Source: Slackia sp. (lineage in GTDB: Bacteria; Actinomycetota; Coriobacteriia; Coriobacteriales; Eggerthellaceae). From it: DNA of 47,513 nucleotides. The notes beneath the pieces were generated by a model. The model did no database searches. It was not told the origin of the DNA and was given only the letters and a program-made list of their open reading frames with translations. A program made the position numbers and the translations under genes. The stretch's first letter is position 1; each line of letters begins with the position of its first letter. The stretch is from contig JAUNDR010000005.1 in NCBI GenBank assembly GCA_030525985.1, positions 22,587 to 70,099 of the forward strand, written 5' to 3'. Of this stretch, positions 42,034 through 47,513 are shown piece by piece.

Positions 42034-44667
42034 ATGAAGTACATGACCACTGCGGAAATCCGCGAGAAATACCTTCGATTCTTCGAAGAGAAGGGGTGCA
42101 AGCGCATGCCTTCCTCCTCGTTGATCCCCGACGATCCGAGCCTGCTGCTTACCAGCGCCGGCATGGTGCAGTTCAAACCCTACTTCCTCCATGTCAAGGA
42201 GTTCGATCCCGCTTATGTCGGCTCCACCACCGTGCAGAAGTGCGTGCGTACGAACGACATCGATATCATCGGCACCACCGGTCGCCATCTGAGCTTCTTC
42301 GAGATGCTGGGCAACTTCAGCTTCGGCAAATATTTTAAAGACGAGATGTGCGCCTGGGCTTATGAGTTCGCCACCGAAGAGCTCGAGCTTCCCAAGGACA
42401 AGCTGTATTTCACCGTATTCGAAGACGATGACGAGACGATTGAAATTTGGAAGAGCCTCGGCGTTTCCGAAGATCATATCTCCCGCCTGGGCGAGGATGA
42501 CAACTTCTGGCGCGCCGGTCCCACCGGTCCGTGCGGCCCGTGCTCCGAAATCTATTTCGATCAGGGTCCCGATTTCGGTTGCGGCAGTCCCGATTGCGCT
42601 CCCGGCTGCGATTGCGATCGCTTCCTCGAGTTCTGGAACTGCGTGTTCACCCAATACGACGGCCAGGAAGACGGCACGCTCGCACCGCTTCCCACGAAGA
42701 ATATCGACACCGGCATGGGCCTCGAGCGCATGGCGGCCATCATGCAGGGCGTGCAGTCTAATTACGAGACCGATGTCATGCGCGACCTCATCGGCGTGGG
42801 CGAACGTTTGAGCGGCAAGGCTTACAAGGCCGACGCTGCCGACGATCTGTCGCTTCGCATCGTGGCCGACCACAGCCGCAGCGTTTCCTTCATGATCGCC
42901 GACGGCATCCTTCCCTCCAACGAGGGCCGCGGATACGTGCTGCGCCGCTTGCTGCGCCGCGCGGTCATGCATGGTCATAAGCTCGGCATCGAGGGCGCAT
43001 TTCTGTCCAACTACGTCGACGCCATCGTTCGCCTGATGGGCGAGGTCTATCCCGAAATCGTCGACAATCGCGAGCTGGTCGAGCGCGTCATCCTTTCCGA
43101 GGAAGAGCGTTTCGGCGTCACGCTGCGTCAGGGCCAGGCCTACCTTGCCGACGCGCTGGAGAAGCTCGAGGGAGGCGTTCTCGACGGAGAGACCGCTTTC
43201 ACGCTGCACGACACGTACGGCTTCCCGGTCGAAATCACCGAGGAGATCTGCGCCGATGCCGGCATCACGGTGGATAAGGCGGGCTTCGAGCAGTGCATGG
43301 ACGAGCAGCGCGCCCGCGCCCGTGCCGCCACGAAAGACGATGCCGAGGCGGCGTGGAGCACCTACGGCGGCATCCACGACGAGTTGCTGAAAGAGCTGGG
43401 CGCCACGGGATTCGTGGGCTATGACCGCCTGAGCGCTTCCGCCGAGGTCAAGGCCCTCGTCAAAGACGGCGTTCGCGTCGATGCGCTTGCCCAAGGCGAA
43501 GAGGGCGAGGTCATCCTGAGCCTGACTCCGTTCTATGCCGAGATGGGCGGCGAAGTGGGCGACACCGGCACGATCGAGGCCGAGGGTATCAAGCTCGATG
43601 TCGTGGATACCAAGGCGCCTGCCAAGGGCCTGGTCTGCCATTCGGCAAAGGTCGTCGAGGGCACGCTGCGCGTGGGCGATACCGTGCGTGCGATCGTCGA
43701 CGAGCTGCGCCGTAAGCGCATCACGCGCAACCATACGTGCACGCATCTGCTGCATTCCGCATTGCGCCAGGTGCTCGGCGAGCATGTCAAGCAGGCGGGC
43801 AGCTATGTCGGCCCCGACCGTCTGCGTTTCGATTTCACGCATTTCGAGGGCATGACGCCCGAGCAGATCGCCGAGGTGGAGCGCGTCGCCAACGATGCGA
43901 TCATGCGCGCCATTCCCACGACCATCTACGAGACGTCCCTCGATGCCGCCCGCGAGTCCGGCGTCACGGGCCTGTTCGGCGAGAAGTACGGCGATGTCGT
44001 GCGCGTCGTCGAGGCGGGCGAGTTCTCTCGCGAGCTGTGCGGCGGCTGCCATGTCGCCAACACCGCCGAAATCGGCTTCGTGAAGATCGTTTCCGAGGCA
44101 AGCGTCGGCGCGAACGTGCGCCGCATCGAGGCGGTGACGAGCTTCGATGCGTTGACGTACATGAACAAAATCGAAGCCGAGCTGAAAGATGCTGCCGGCG
44201 AGCTCAAGGTTCCGATGTTCGACGTCTCCGAGCGCACCGCCGCCAACATCCGTCTCATCAAAGAGTTCGAGGCGAAGGCGAAGCAGGCGAAGAAGGCGGC
44301 CGCCGAAGGCAACGTGGCGGAGCATATCAAGGCGATGGTCGATGTGGGCTATCCGCTGGTCATCGCTCGCATCGACGGACTTGACGCGGGCGCATTGCGC
44401 AACGCATGGGATGTCTTGCGTTCGCGCATGCCCAAGCCCGGCGCCTGCGTTATCGGCACGGTGAACGACGACAAGCCGGTCATCATGGCGGCAGGCACCG
44501 ATGAAGCGGTCGCTGCAGGATTCAACGCCGGCGCGCTCATCAAGGAAATCGCCTCCAACATCAAGGGCGGCGGCGGCGGAAAGCCCACCATGGCGCAGGC
44601 AGGCGGCAAGGACGCCTCCGGCATGGATGCCGCTCTGGATGCGGCGCGTCAGGTGCTCGGCGCATAG
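42034..44667 (+). CDS. alaS: Alanyl-tRNA synthetase
   Basis: 877 aa class II synthetase charging tRNA-Ala. Begins MKYMTTAEIREKYLRFFEEKG as most AlaRSs do. TTVQKCVRTNDIDIIGTTGRH and FFEMLGNFSFGKYFK belong to the catalytic core. The editing domain carries HTCTHLLHSALRQVLG and CGGCHVANT (zinc site). The C-terminal GGGGGKPTMAQAGGKDASGM is the C-Ala motif. ATG 42034 is taken as start; ATG 42043 is close by, and the ribosome-binding site is weak (GAGAGTGAGA). The longer frame from 41803 overlaps the permease gene and is rejected. Confidence 0.97.
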   Translation: MKYMTTAEIREKYLRFFEEKGCKRMPSSSLIPDDPSLLLTSAGMVQFKPYFLHVKEFDPAYVGSTTVQKCVRTNDIDIIGTTGRHLSFFEMLGNFSFGKYFKDEMCAWAYEFATEELELPKDKLYFTVFEDDDETIEIWKSLGVSEDHISRLGEDDNFWRAGPTGPCGPCSEIYFDQGPDFGCGSPDCAPGCDCDRFLEFWNCVFTQYDGQEDGTLAPLPTKNIDTGMGLERMAAIMQGVQSNYETDVMRDLIGVGERLSGKAYKADAADDLSLRIVADHSRSVSFMIADGILPSNEGRGYVLRRLLRRAVMHGHKLGIEGAFLSNYVDAIVRLMGEVYPEIVDNRELVERVILSEEERFGVTLRQGQAYLADALEKLEGGVLDGETAFTLHDTYGFPVEITEEICADAGITVDKAGFEQCMDEQRARARAATKDDAEAAWSTYGGIHDELLKELGATGFVGYDRLSASAEVKALVKDGVRVDALAQGEEGEVILSLTPFYAEMGGEVGDTGTIEAEGIKLDVVDTKAPAKGLVCHSAKVVEGTLRVGDTVRAIVDELRRKRITRNHTCTHLLHSALRQVLGEHVKQAGSYVGPDRLRFDFTHFEGMTPEQIAEVERVANDAIMRAIPTTIYETSLDAARESGVTGLFGEKYGDVVRVVEAGEFSRELCGGCHVANTAEIGFVKIVSEASVGANVRRIEAVTSFDALTYMNKIEAELKDAAGELKVPMFDVSERTAANIRLIKEFEAKAKQAKKAAAEGNVAEHIKAMVDVGYPLVIARIDGLDAGALRNAWDVLRSRMPKPGACVIGTVNDDKPVIMAAGTDEAVAAGFNAGALIKEIASNIKGGGGGKPTMAQAGGKDASGMDAALDAARQVLGA

Positions 44668-44733
44668 GTTGCATATGTCTTCGGTGCGCCGCCGCAAAGC
44701 GTCTTCGCGCGGCGGCGTATCGAAAGCGATTCA

Positions 44734-44757
44734 GACGGGTCCGTTCACGGACCCGTC
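44734..44757 (+). other. Hairpin between alaS and ruvX
   Basis: GACGGGTCCG-TTCA-CGGACCCGTC: perfect 10 bp stem with a tetraloop but only a short T-tract after it. It may be a weak terminator or an attenuator ahead of ruvX. Confidence 0.6.
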
Positions 44758-44779
44758 TTCATGAACGAAGGGGTTTTGT

Positions 44780-45202
44780 ATGAGGACGCTTGCTCTCGAC
44801 ATCGGGGAGGTGCGCATCGGTCTTGCCGTCAGCGACGCGGCAGGCAGGGTGGCGACTCCTTTGAAGGTGCTTCCCGCCAAAGACGTGCTTTCCGACGGCG
44901 CCGAATTCAGGCGCATCGTGCAAGACTGGGAGATAGAGCGCCTGGTATGCGGCCTTCCTTATACGCTTGCGGGCGAAGAGGGGCCCCAGGCGACATCCAT
45001 CAAGGAGCGGGCGAGCCGCATCGCCAAGGCGCGTTCGCTGCCGCTGTTTTTCGCCGATGAGCGCATGAGCTCTCGCGAGGCGAAACGCATTTTGCGTGAA
45101 GAGGGTTTGGACGAGCGGGCCATGCGCGGTAAAGTAGACATGATTGCGGCAAGTCTGTTCCTGCAATCATGGCTCGATGCCGAAAACGGCCGCGAGTTCT
45201 GA
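44780..45202 (+). CDS. ruvX: Holliday junction resolvase-like / pre-16S rRNA nuclease RuvX (YqgF)
   Basis: 140 aa RNase H-fold protein. N-terminal LALDIGEVRIGLAVSDAAG holds the first catalytic Asp, VCGLPYTLAGEEGPQA the conserved Gly-Leu-Pro segment, and FFADERMSSREAKRIL the Glu-containing motif. VDMIAASLFLQSWL holds the final Asp. Family role: processing of the 5' end of 16S rRNA. ATG 44780 has AAGGGG about 8 nt upstream. Order alaS-ruvX-mltG is conserved in Gram-positive bacteria. Confidence 0.94.
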   Translation: MRTLALDIGEVRIGLAVSDAAGRVATPLKVLPAKDVLSDGAEFRRIVQDWEIERLVCGLPYTLAGEEGPQATSIKERASRIAKARSLPLFFADERMSSREAKRILREEGLDERAMRGKVDMIAASLFLQSWLDAENGREF

Positions 45203-45245
45203 GCTCGCGCAGCATTCCTGCGCCCGATCACAGATAAGGAAATCC

Positions 45246-46427
45246 ATGCGTCGTAAGCAGATTACGTATAGCTCCCATCCCAATCATCGCGCTCGCATGG
45301 TACATGCGCAGGGCGAGCGTCAGTTCAGAACCTACGATACGTCCCATATTCGCCCGCGCAAGAGCAAGGCCCCCTTCGTCATAGCCTGCGTTCTTGTTGC
45401 AATCGTCGTTGCGGCGGGCGCCGTGTTCGCCTTCGGTGCGGTGAAGGGCTGCTCGGCAGACACCGAGGCGATCGGTTCCGAGCAGGTCGTTTCTTCCGAT
45501 GTGCGTGCTACCGTCCTCGAGGGCGCCACGGCATCGGATGTCGCATCCGCCCTTGCGGCGGCAGGCGTCATTCCCAATGCCGACGATTTTCTCGCTCGCG
45601 CCAAGGCGCTCGAGCTCGACGGTCTTTTCCAGGCGGGCACCTACCATTTCCATGCCGGCATGACGCTCGACGACGTGGTGCGCGCCGTCTCCTCGGGCGA
45701 TTTGGGCACGGTTTCGCTCACTATCCCCGAAGGCTATAAACTCGCGGACATCGCCGCCGCCGTGGAGCAGGCGACCGAGGGCCGCGTGAGCGCCGCCGAT
45801 TTCAGCGCGGCCGCGTCCGATGCGCGCTCGTATGCGTCCGATTACGCGTTTCTTGCGGATGCTCCCGAAGGCGTGTCGCTTGAGGGGTTCCTGTTCCCCA
45901 AGACCTATGAATTGGGAAGCGATGCCACGGCCGATTCGATCGTGCGCATGATGCTTTCCCAGTTCAAGACCGAAACGGCATCGCTTGACTGGTCGTATCC
46001 CGAAAGCCTGGGGCTGTCGGTCTACGATGCGGTGACGCTCGCCTCCATCGTCGAGAAGGAATCCAGCGGCGACGAGCGGATACGCTCCCAGGTGGCGGCG
46101 GTGTTCTACAACCGCCTGAGCTCCCGCAACGTCGAGACCAACGGCTTTTTGCAGTCGGACGCCACGACGGCCTACGAAGTGGGCCACGATCCGAGCGCCG
46201 AGGAAGTGCAGGCCGCGACGCCTTACAGCACGTATGCCAATCCCGGGCTGCCGCCCACGCCGATCTGCTCTCCGAGCATCGATTGCCTCCAGGCGGTGTG
46301 CGCTCCCGCGTCCGATTACGACGACTATTACTACTTCATTTTCTGGAATAACGATGCCGGCGAAGTCGAATATGCGTTCAGCAAAACCTACGAAGAGCAC
46401 CAGCGCGCTATCGCCGAGCATCTGTAG
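45246..46427 (+). CDS. mltG: Endolytic murein transglycosylase MltG (YceG)
   Basis: 393 aa. Cytoplasmic N-terminus (about 43 residues), one transmembrane helix (FVIACVLVAIVVAAGAVFAF, about residues 44-63), then an exported LysM-like region and the YceG domain. Catalytic Glu is in SIVEKESS (Glu270). FLFPKTYEL, LQSDATTAYEVG and YSTYANPGLPPTPICSPS are the other diagnostic blocks. It cleaves nascent glycan strands and sets chain length. The ATG has AAGGAA 5 nt upstream. yqeG follows 8 bp after its stop. Confidence 0.94.
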   Translation: MRRKQITYSSHPNHRARMVHAQGERQFRTYDTSHIRPRKSKAPFVIACVLVAIVVAAGAVFAFGAVKGCSADTEAIGSEQVVSSDVRATVLEGATASDVASALAAAGVIPNADDFLARAKALELDGLFQAGTYHFHAGMTLDDVVRAVSSGDLGTVSLTIPEGYKLADIAAAVEQATEGRVSAADFSAAASDARSYASDYAFLADAPEGVSLEGFLFPKTYELGSDATADSIVRMMLSQFKTETASLDWSYPESLGLSVYDAVTLASIVEKESSGDERIRSQVAAVFYNRLSSRNVETNGFLQSDATTAYEVGHDPSAEEVQAATPYSTYANPGLPPTPICSPSIDCLQAVCAPASDYDDYYYFIFWNNDAGEVEYAFSKTYEEHQRAIAEHL

Positions 46428-46435
46428 GAAGCATC

Positions 46436-46933
46436 ATGTCGTTTTTCAAGCCTGACCGTTTTTTGACGCGCATCACCGACCTCGATCCCGTTTCCGATAT
46501 CGCCGATGCGGGCTTCTCGCACGTGTTCCTCGATCTTGACAACACGCTTCTGACGCGCGATACGCACGAGGTTCCCGAAGACATCCGCGCCTGGCTCGAT
46601 CGCGTGCGCTCTGTCGGCGTAAGCGCATGCATCCTCACGAACAATTGGCACCACGGCGCGCATGAATGGGCGCAGCGTCTCGGGCTTCCCATCGTTTCGC
46701 ACGCCGTGAAGCCGTTGCCGTTCGCCTATCTCGTCGCAATGAGGAAAACGGGGGCGCGCCGTAAATCGACGCTGTGTATCGGCGACCAGCTTATCACCGA
46801 TGTCTGGGGCGCCCATGTTTCCGGCATGCGTGTGGTTATGACGAAGCCGCTGGTCGAGGCCGATTTGAAGCACACGCTCATGCTGCGTCACGTGGAGAAG
46901 CTCTTCATGCGCGACGTTCGTCCCGAGCGCTAG
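46436..46933 (+). CDS. yqeG: YqeG-family HAD-IIIA phosphatase
   Basis: 165 aa HAD-superfamily phosphatase. DLDNTL at residues 33-38 is the nucleophile loop (Asp33, Asp35); ILTNNWHHGA, HAVKPLPFAYLVAM and CIGDQLITDVWGA are motifs II-IV. YqeG members are often encoded near shikimate genes and resemble phosphatidylglycerophosphatase GEP4; the substrate in bacteria is not settled. It starts 8 bp after mltG, so it is in the same transcript. The next gene is the AroC-like one, in keeping with the yqeG/shikimate neighbourhood. Confidence 0.93.
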   Translation: MSFFKPDRFLTRITDLDPVSDIADAGFSHVFLDLDNTLLTRDTHEVPEDIRAWLDRVRSVGVSACILTNNWHHGAHEWAQRLGLPIVSHAVKPLPFAYLVAMRKTGARRKSTLCIGDQLITDVWGAHVSGMRVVMTKPLVEADLKHTLMLRHVEKLFMRDVRPER

Positions 46934-47010
46934 CTGCAAGTTCGCGCCGGAGCATGCGGCGGGTTTGCCGCGTGCTACAATCGTCGCGAAAATACGACTA
47001 TGTTGGGGGC

Positions 47011-47513
47011 ATGATGCGTTACGAAATCGCAGGAGAGCCGCGAAGCGCCGTTTTGACGGCCATCATACAAGACGTTCCCGCGGGCTTGCCCGTGCGATGC
47101 GACGCCATCGACGCCGATGTGGCGCGATGGGCGCATGCGAACGATTGCGCCGAAGAAACTCCCGGCGTCGTGCTGCATTCCGGCATTTCTTGCGGGCGTA
47201 CGACGGGCGCACCCATCATGATGACGCTCGACAACGTCGCCTATGCGCAGGCGGCGGGCAGGCGCGTGCGCAAACGCAGCACTCCGTGTCCCGGCACTCC
47301 CGAAGCCGTCGGCATGCAGAAATATGCGCTCGATAACGCCGATCTGCTCGAGTATCGCTGCGCATCGCGCCTTGATGCTATGCGCGTCGCGGCGGCGGGC
47401 ATAGCGCGGGAATTCCTCGCCGACTTCGGGGTCGATATCGTGTCGTGCGTGACGCGCATCGGCAAAGCCGCCATGCATGCCAGCCCCTTCGATGCGCCCA
47501 AGCCTCCCTCGCC
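47011..47513 (+). CDS. Chorismate synthase-like protein, divergent (5' part only)
   Basis: Partial: 167 codons to the window edge, frame open throughout. Alignment to AroC by eye is clear: YEIAGEPRSAVLTAIIQDVPAGLPV corresponds to the GESHG..VPxGxPL start, SGISCGRTTGAPIMMTLDN to SGxxxGxTTGxPIxxxxxN, and QKYALDNADLLEYRCASRLDAMRVAAAGIAREFL to the KYG...SARETAxRVAAGAIA block. The conserved catalytic SHG is PRS, RPGHAD is CPGTPE, and the RR pair is RW, so both active-site histidines are missing. Either a non-catalytic paralogue or a strongly altered enzyme; it is not obviously a pseudogene, as no stop or frameshift is seen. Start: ATG 47011 or ATG 47014, after GGGGG. TACAAT at 46976-46981 may be its -10. 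Confidence 0.75.
   Translation, partial: MMRYEIAGEPRSAVLTAIIQDVPAGLPVRCDAIDADVARWAHANDCAEETPGVVLHSGISCGRTTGAPIMMTLDNVAYAQAAGRRVRKRSTPCPGTPEAVGMQKYALDNADLLEYRCASRLDAMRVAAAGIAREFLADFGVDIVSCVTRIGKAAMHASPFDAPKPPS

What the first reader, a model, noticed from the sequence alone, without database searches (positions are those of the whole stretch)
47011..47513. Chorismate synthase-like protein lacking both catalytic histidines
The fold-level pattern of AroC is intact over 167 codons (VPAGLPV, SGISCGRTTGAPI, MRVAAAGIAREFL), but the SHG and RPGHAD motifs are PRS and CPGTPE, and the RR and SARET motifs are altered too. The frame is clean, so it seems to be kept by selection. It may be a regulatory or scaffolding paralogue, or a lineage-specific enzyme with a new active site.
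Basis: partly seen in the sequence, partly recalled or inferred. Interest (0 to 1): 0.68.

Follow-up and report, generated by a model that had tools for sequence, protein, structure and literature searches.

The report
Slackia chorismate synthase pseudoenzyme beside AroK
Nearly every Slackia species (anaerobic animal-associated bacteria) keeps a second, catalytically dead-looking copy of the enzyme chorismate synthase under natural selection, apparently the leftover of an aromatic-amino-acid operon whose enzymatic job was taken over by another gene cluster.

Summary
The ORF at 47014 runs past the window (378 codons, across a 10-N scaffold gap) and encodes a full-length chorismate-synthase (AroC) homologue without the SHG and RPGHAD histidines. 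The host is a Slackia species (Eggerthellaceae).

A canonical aroC exists elsewhere in the genome, so this copy is redundant for catalysis. It lies at the ancestral family locus (alaS-ruvX-mltG-yqeG-aroE-aroC-aroK-aroB-aroQ), of which Slackia kept only aroC' and aroK'. The working aroC belongs to another AroC clade shared with other Coriobacteriales families.

Eleven of 12 Slackia genomes sampled carry aroC'. All eleven lack the RPGHAD histidine, nine the SHG histidine, and the EPSP- and FMN-site residues are mostly gone. The predicted fold is intact (pLDDT 90; Z 44 to M. tuberculosis AroC), frames are open, and dN/dS is 0.15-0.30, against about 0.9 in neutral simulation.

Two lineages independently deleted the body of aroC'. 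They kept its promoter-like block, start region and the junction with aroK'.

Best reading: a genus-wide AroC pseudoenzyme, co-expressed with a modified AroK paralogue and probably acting as a non-catalytic partner. That last step is inferred. I found no described AroC pseudoenzyme in the papers available.

The parts
46973..46982 (+). TGCTACAATC block, extended -10-like, 31 nt upstream of the aroC' start
   Evidence: Found in 12 of 13 Slackia loci, including both that lost aroC'; G007 has GTGCTAGAATC. Single match in the window, 0.03 expected by chance. No -35 was found by the consensus scan.
47014..47513 (+). aroC' (AroC pseudoenzyme), 5' part of a 378-codon ORF that continues past the window end (G000:C9:69600-70733)
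   Evidence: Pfam PF01264 1.2e-54; ORF across the scaffold gap; profile match 558 bits.
47038..47046 (+). former S-H-G motif, now P-R-S (residues 9-11)
   Evidence: Read directly. H10 is kept in 2 of 11 Slackia copies and in 32 of 32 other AroC sequences aligned.
47128..47130 (+). former EPSP-site Arg39, now Trp39
   Evidence: W in 9 of 11 Slackia copies, R in 32 of 32 others.
47287..47304 (+). former R-P-G-H-A-D motif, now C-P-G-T-P-E (residues 92-97)
   Evidence: Read directly. The histidine is T, S or C in 11 of 11 Slackia copies and H in 32 of 32 others.
46436..46933 (+). yqeG (HAD-family) upstream neighbour; part of the syntenic anchor alaS-ruvX-mltG-yqeG
   Evidence: Same order in the Slackia loci and in most other Eggerthellaceae loci.
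44780..45202 (+). ruvX, syntenic anchor
45144..46427 (+). mltG-like ORF, syntenic anchor (coordinates are the whole mechanical ORF)

Best explanation
aroC' is a fold-preserving pseudoenzyme, the direct descendant of the Eggerthellaceae aroC. Slackia gained a second aro cluster (aroB, aroC, chorismate mutase-AroE-AroK fusion, aroQ) whose aroC is of another Coriobacteriales type. The old operon then lost aroE, aroB and aroQ, and its aroC and aroK were released from their pathway roles. aroC' lost its EPSP and FMN sites but kept its fold, and is expressed with aroK', whose ribosome-binding region overlaps its stop codon. It most likely acts as a non-catalytic protein partner, most simply of AroK', a shikimate-kinase paralogue with an altered substrate loop (GGG to GEG). 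Shown here: homology, synteny, residue losses, predicted fold, purifying selection, overlapping or adjacent reading frames and two independent losses. Inferred: that the protein is made, is inactive, and binds AroK'.
For: A canonical aroC and an aroA are elsewhere in the genome. 11 of 12 Slackia genomes carry both copies; in a class-wide scan only Slackia showed such a diverged extra copy. Tree: aroC' plus family aroC form one side with SH-aLRT 100, and Slackia canonical aroC groups with other Coriobacteriales families. Synteny. S9, H10, R39, H108, K311, R337 and D339 are invariant or nearly so in 32 other AroC and mostly lost in aroC', while 52 of 170 family-conserved columns are kept in at least 10 of 11. 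Model pLDDT 89.9, pTM 0.90; Z 43.9, rmsd 2.0 A over 369 residues to 2qhf. dN/dS 0.195 [0.13-0.28] and 0.148 [0.10-0.21], low in every 75-codon window, against 0.64-1.33 and 0.61-1.29 in neutral simulation. aroK' start overlaps or lies within 5 nt of the aroC' stop in 11 of 11. AroK' keeps 33 of 48 family-conserved residues, with G to E in 13 of 13.
Against: Two Slackia lineages have independently lost all but the 5' end of aroC' while keeping aroK', so the protein is dispensable in some settings and AroK' does not strictly need it. Nothing here shows expression, inactivity or physical interaction. aroC' evolves faster than canonical aroC in most pairs. The two AroC' copies from S. equolifaciens and a close MAG still have the first histidine.
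Confidence: 0.55

Rival explanations
1. Passenger held in place by cis effects. The open frame persists mainly because its 5' end carries the promoter and start site and its 3' end the ribosome-binding site for aroK'; the protein itself is on its way out.
For: aroK' is in all 13 Slackia loci seen, aroC' in 11. Both losses are internal deletions keeping the promoter-like block, start codon, about 4-20 codons and the junction with aroK'. Stop and start overlap or nearly do.
Against: Coupling would select against stops and frameshifts, not amino-acid changes, yet dN/dS is 0.15-0.20 in the informative pairs and low across the whole gene. 52 ancestral core positions are kept in at least 10 of 11 copies.
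Confidence: 0.22
2. A new enzyme on the AroC fold, using a remodelled pocket for another substrate, perhaps made by AroK'.
For: Fold and purifying selection. A few clade-specific conserved residues, such as W39 (9/11), T/S/C at the old His108 and D312 (10/11). The neighbouring AroK' substrate loop is also altered.
Against: Former active-site columns are as variable (mean top-residue share 0.51) as ordinary variable columns (0.54), well below other family-invariant ones (0.70). Nearly all fully invariant polar residues are ancestral.
Confidence: 0.15
3. Still a chorismate synthase, weak or regulated, with catalysis tolerating loss of the histidines.
For: Full fold; the arginine of SARET and the first asparagine of NN are kept in 10 of 11. 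Two orthologues pass the TIGR00033 cut-off.
Against: EPSP-site arginines (R39, R45, R337), the H108 site and K311 are lost together, and a canonical aroC with a complete cluster is present. The window protein is below the TIGR00033 cut-off (185.1 against 212.2).
Confidence: 0.06
4. Sequencing or assembly artefact, or frameshifted canonical gene.
For: The gene spans a 10-N scaffold gap just beyond the window.
Against: Ten other Slackia genomes, including a finished genome and type-strain assemblies, have the same kind of gene at the same locus with open frames.
Confidence: 0.01

Closest known systems
Chorismate synthase (AroC, EC 4.2.3.5; PF01264, TIGR00033)
   Same: Full-length homology, predicted beta-alpha-beta AroC fold (Z 43.9 to M. 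tuberculosis 2qhf), position in the family aro operon.
   Different: No RPGHAD histidine in any Slackia copy, mostly no SHG histidine; EPSP-site arginines and several FMN-site residues gone; found beside a working aroC of another clade.
Plant shikimate-kinase-like proteins SKL1 and SKL2 (PMC2593004)
   Same: Shikimate-pathway duplicates that lost the ancestral activity or binding sites yet were retained; SKL1 has a required role in chloroplast biogenesis.
   Different: Derived from shikimate kinase in plants, not chorismate synthase; SKL1/2 gained extra domains or motifs, whereas no extra domain is seen in aroC'.
Bacterial pseudoenzymes in general (catalytically dead paralogues acting as scaffolds or allosteric subunits; general knowledge)
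   Same: Fold kept, catalytic residues lost, purifying selection, active homologue in the same genome.
   Different: Partner and role unknown here; here the dead copy is the vertically inherited gene and the active one belongs to a different, apparently incoming, lineage.
Shikimate-kinase-like homoserine kinase (NF040667)
   Same: Shikimate-kinase-family paralogue with changed specificity, considered for AroK'.
   Different: AroK' scores 68 against a cut-off of 197 and below true shikimate kinases; Slackia has a regular ThrB.

Membership tests
Chorismate synthase (active AroC) | AroC domain over the full length | tested here: met
   PF01264 1.2e-54, profile 1-325 of 327.
Chorismate synthase (active AroC) | Two invariant catalytic histidines (SHG and RPGHAD) | tested here: not met
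   R10 and T95 in the window protein; H108 lost in 11/11, H10 in 9/11 Slackia copies.
Chorismate synthase (active AroC) | EPSP- and FMN-site residues (R39, R45, R337, D339, K311, second Asn of NN) | tested here: not met
   R39 0/11, K311 0/11, second Asn 0/11, R45 2/11, D339 2/11, R337 3/11. Site assignment follows general knowledge and homologous sites in PMC11633415 and PMC7144000.
Chorismate synthase (active AroC) | Equivalog score TIGR00033 at least 212.2 | tested here: not met
   Window protein 185.1; orthologues range from 130.3 to 245.2.
Chorismate synthase (active AroC) | AroC fold | tested here: met
   AF2 model of the S. faecicanis orthologue, Z 43.9, rmsd 2.0 A, 369 residues.
Chorismate synthase (active AroC) | Turnover of EPSP with reduced FMN; tetramer | not testable with these tools
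   Needs biochemistry.
Pseudoenzyme | Loss of catalytic residues with retained fold | tested here: met
Pseudoenzyme | Maintained by purifying selection | tested here: met
   dN/dS 0.148-0.195 in informative pairs; neutral simulation 0.61-1.33.
Pseudoenzyme | Active homologue in the same genome | tested here: met
   Canonical aroC at C38 with RPGHAD.
Pseudoenzyme | Protein is made and has a non-catalytic function | not testable with these tools
   No proteome or genetics available.
Pseudogene | Disrupted frame or dN/dS near 1 | tested here: not met
   No stops in 11 full-length copies; dN/dS well below 1.
Pseudogene | Loss tolerated in relatives | tested here: met
   Two independent deletions: G003 and the second strain in the G002 bin.

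The most novel reading that the evidence does not exclude
AroC' and AroK' form a new two-protein module: a dead chorismate synthase acting as regulatory or scaffold subunit of a shikimate-kinase-derived kinase with a changed substrate. It was born when a second aro cluster displaced the original operon, and is being streamlined to AroK' plus a short leader in some Slackia lineages.
Probability: 0.25. Interest if true: 0.7.

Novelty: new variant of a known kind. Interest (0 to 1): 0.5.

Why it matters
Chorismate synthase is a nearly universal bacterial enzyme, and the papers searched here describe no conserved inactive paralogue of it. Slackia offers a natural series: intact relatives, eleven inactivated but constrained copies, and two independent deletions in one genus, with the displaced operon still in place. 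That makes it testable how a displaced metabolic enzyme is either given a non-catalytic role or eroded. It also warns annotation pipelines: some of these copies pass the chorismate synthase cut-off and would be named as active enzymes.

Tried and rejected
Homoserine kinase role for AroK': rejected, since Slackia has a regular ThrB and AroK' scores far below the NF040667 cut-off.

Frameshift or assembly error: rejected by ten orthologues.

New active site: looked for clade-specific invariant residues; only weak signals such as W39 and D312.

Translational coupling as sole reason for the open frame: not enough, given low dN/dS along the whole gene.

Structured RNA at the locus: no Rfam match in 44000-47513. 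Sigma-70 scan found no promoter by its strict rule; the conserved TGCTACAAT block is the only support.

The phylum-wide scan for that block with a fixed 30-nt spacer was badly designed and uninformative.

YN00 dN/dS often failed; NG86 with bootstrap was used instead. aroK' rates are spoilt by upstream stop-to-stop sequence and are replaced.

The key paper on the two histidines (Kitzing 2004) is not held.

Full report
OBSERVATION. The reading frame at 47014 encodes an AroC homologue in which SHG is PRS and RPGHAD is CPGTPE. The window stops at a 10-N scaffold gap. In the host genome the frame continues to 378 codons (C9:69600-70733), with homology to AroC on both sides of the gap. Pfam Chorismate_synt matches over essentially its whole length at 1.2e-54. 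The NCBI equivalog model TIGR00033 gives 185.1 bits, below its cut-off of 212.2.

HOST AND CANONICAL COPY. Named records identify the genus as Slackia: S. faecicanis, S. piriformis, S. equolifaciens and S. isoflavoniconvertens carry the gene at the matching places. G009 has exactly the 3,165,038-bp length of S. heliotrinireducens. The genome also holds a canonical aroC (C38, 396.9 bits) with RPGHAD intact. It lies in a cluster aroB, aroC, a chorismate mutase-AroE-AroK fusion and aroQ. An aroA above its cut-off lies elsewhere. The pathway therefore does not need the window gene.

DISTRIBUTION AND ORIGIN. Of 12 Slackia genomes, 11 carry both copies. Other Eggerthellaceae genera carry one aroC, with one exception (G024, a highly fragmented genome, has two high-scoring copies), and a scan of 246 genomes of the class found no other diverged extra copy. 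The window gene sits where the family's only aroC normally sits: alaS-ruvX-mltG-yqeG-aroE-aroC-aroK-aroB-aroQ-pepP. In Slackia aroE, aroB and aroQ are gone, leaving yqeG-aroC'-aroK'-pepP. In the tree, aroC' and the family's aroC form one side with support 100. Slackia canonical aroC falls with the AroC of other Coriobacteriales families. The simplest history is gain of a second aro cluster, then release of the old aroC and aroK. Transfer direction was not tested.

RESIDUES. In 32 aligned canonical AroC sequences S9, H10, R39, R105, H108, S130, R132, R337 and D339 are invariant and K311 nearly so. In the 11 aroC' copies H108 is T, S or C throughout; R39 is W in 9 and never R; K311 is never K; H10 survives in 2, R337 in 3 and D339 in 2. 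Only R132 and the first asparagine of the NN motif are held (10/11). These sites vary within the clade about as much as ordinary variable columns (0.51 against 0.54), while other family-invariant columns stay at 0.70. 52 of 170 family-conserved columns are kept in at least 10 of 11 copies. So catalytic constraint was lifted and structural constraint was not. That argues against a shared new active site, with W39 and D312 as weak exceptions. Site roles follow general knowledge of AroC structures and the discussion in PMC7144000 and PMC11633415.

FOLD. The S. faecicanis orthologue is predicted with mean pLDDT 89.9 and pTM 0.90. It aligns to M. tuberculosis chorismate synthase with Z 43.9, rmsd 2.0 A over 369 residues, and to chain 1qxo_A (chorismate synthase with FMN and EPSP) with Z 43.5 (Foldseek agrees). 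The alignment contained canonical family members, so this shows compatibility with the fold rather than independent proof.

SELECTION. dN/dS (NG86, bootstrap range) is 0.195 (0.13-0.28) for S. faecicanis against G010, where canonical aroC gives 0.207. It is 0.148 (0.10-0.21) for S. equolifaciens against G004, where canonical aroC gives 0.085. Against G000 it is about 0.29, with dS above 1 and so less certain. Neutral simulation of the two informative pairs gives 0.64-1.33 and 0.61-1.29, and on average 4.6 and 7.2 stop codons, against none observed. The ratio is low in every 75-codon window. This is purifying selection on the protein, somewhat relaxed in most pairs compared with canonical aroC.

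COUPLING AND LOSS. The aroK' start overlaps the aroC' stop (GTGA) or lies within 5 nt of it in all 11 loci, and the GGTGA at that stop would serve as the aroK' ribosome-binding site in most. A TGCTACAATC block precedes the aroC' start in 12 of 13 loci. In G003 and in a second Slackia strain within the G002 bin, the body of aroC' is deleted. What remains is the block, the start codon, about 4-20 recognisable codons and the junction with aroK'. The concatenated tree forces two independent losses. AroK' is present in all 13. It keeps the P-loop, the RPLL arginine and other shikimate-kinase residues but has glutamate at the middle of the GGG substrate loop in 13 of 13. That loop is part of the shikimate pocket in M. 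tuberculosis (PMC7144000).

INTERPRETATION. Full-length purifying selection, loss of the active site, conserved core, coupling to aroK', and tolerance of loss in some lineages fit a pseudoenzyme with a non-catalytic, conditionally useful role. Because aroC' was never seen without aroK' and aroK' can do without aroC', AroK' is the most economical partner. That step is inference. The main rival is a passenger whose ends matter in cis; it explains the deletions but not the low dN/dS.

PRECEDENT. Plant SKL1 and SKL2 are shikimate-kinase duplicates that lost activity and were retained (PMC2593004). Searches for a chorismate synthase pseudoenzyme found no such case. The library covers only openly licensed papers, and second AroC copies outside the class were not surveyed, so novelty is provisional.

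LIMITS. dN/dS is pairwise and saturated beyond the close pairs. G002 is a contaminated bin (83% complete, 5% contaminated). G003 is 84% complete, but its aroC' absence is read directly from a contiguous locus. Expression, oligomeric state and activity are untested.

Noticed in passing
L003:2232-2683 (G000:C9, just outside the window); L154, L158 and other Slackia loci: The shikimate kinase paralogue AroK' is present in all 13 Slackia loci, strongly conserved, with glutamate in the middle of the GGG substrate loop in all. It may have a new substrate.
   Followed up: partly
L154:7208-8480 (-) and L158:4467-5710 (+): Two Slackia lineages independently deleted the body of aroC', leaving a short leader ORF directly upstream of aroK'.
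   Followed up: yes
L156:6552-7082, L159:5219-5797, L160:5374-5880, L161:5494-6042: The non-Slackia Eggerthellaceae sampled lack a ThrB over the TIGR00191 cut-off, and most carry a second shikimate-kinase-family gene; four tested match the SK-like homoserine kinase model NF040667 best (159-173 bits, cut-off 197). Probably their missing homoserine kinase.
   Followed up: partly
L004:1772-3502 (-): Slackia canonical cluster encodes a chorismate mutase-AroE-AroK fusion beside aroC. In S. heliotrinireducens (G009) a shikimate kinase is instead found as a stand-alone gene at C1:771905.
   Followed up: no
   Followed up: yes
G002 (C15, C187 and C86, C195): This Slackia bin mixes two strains, one S. 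piriformis-like with aroC' and one without.
   Followed up: partly
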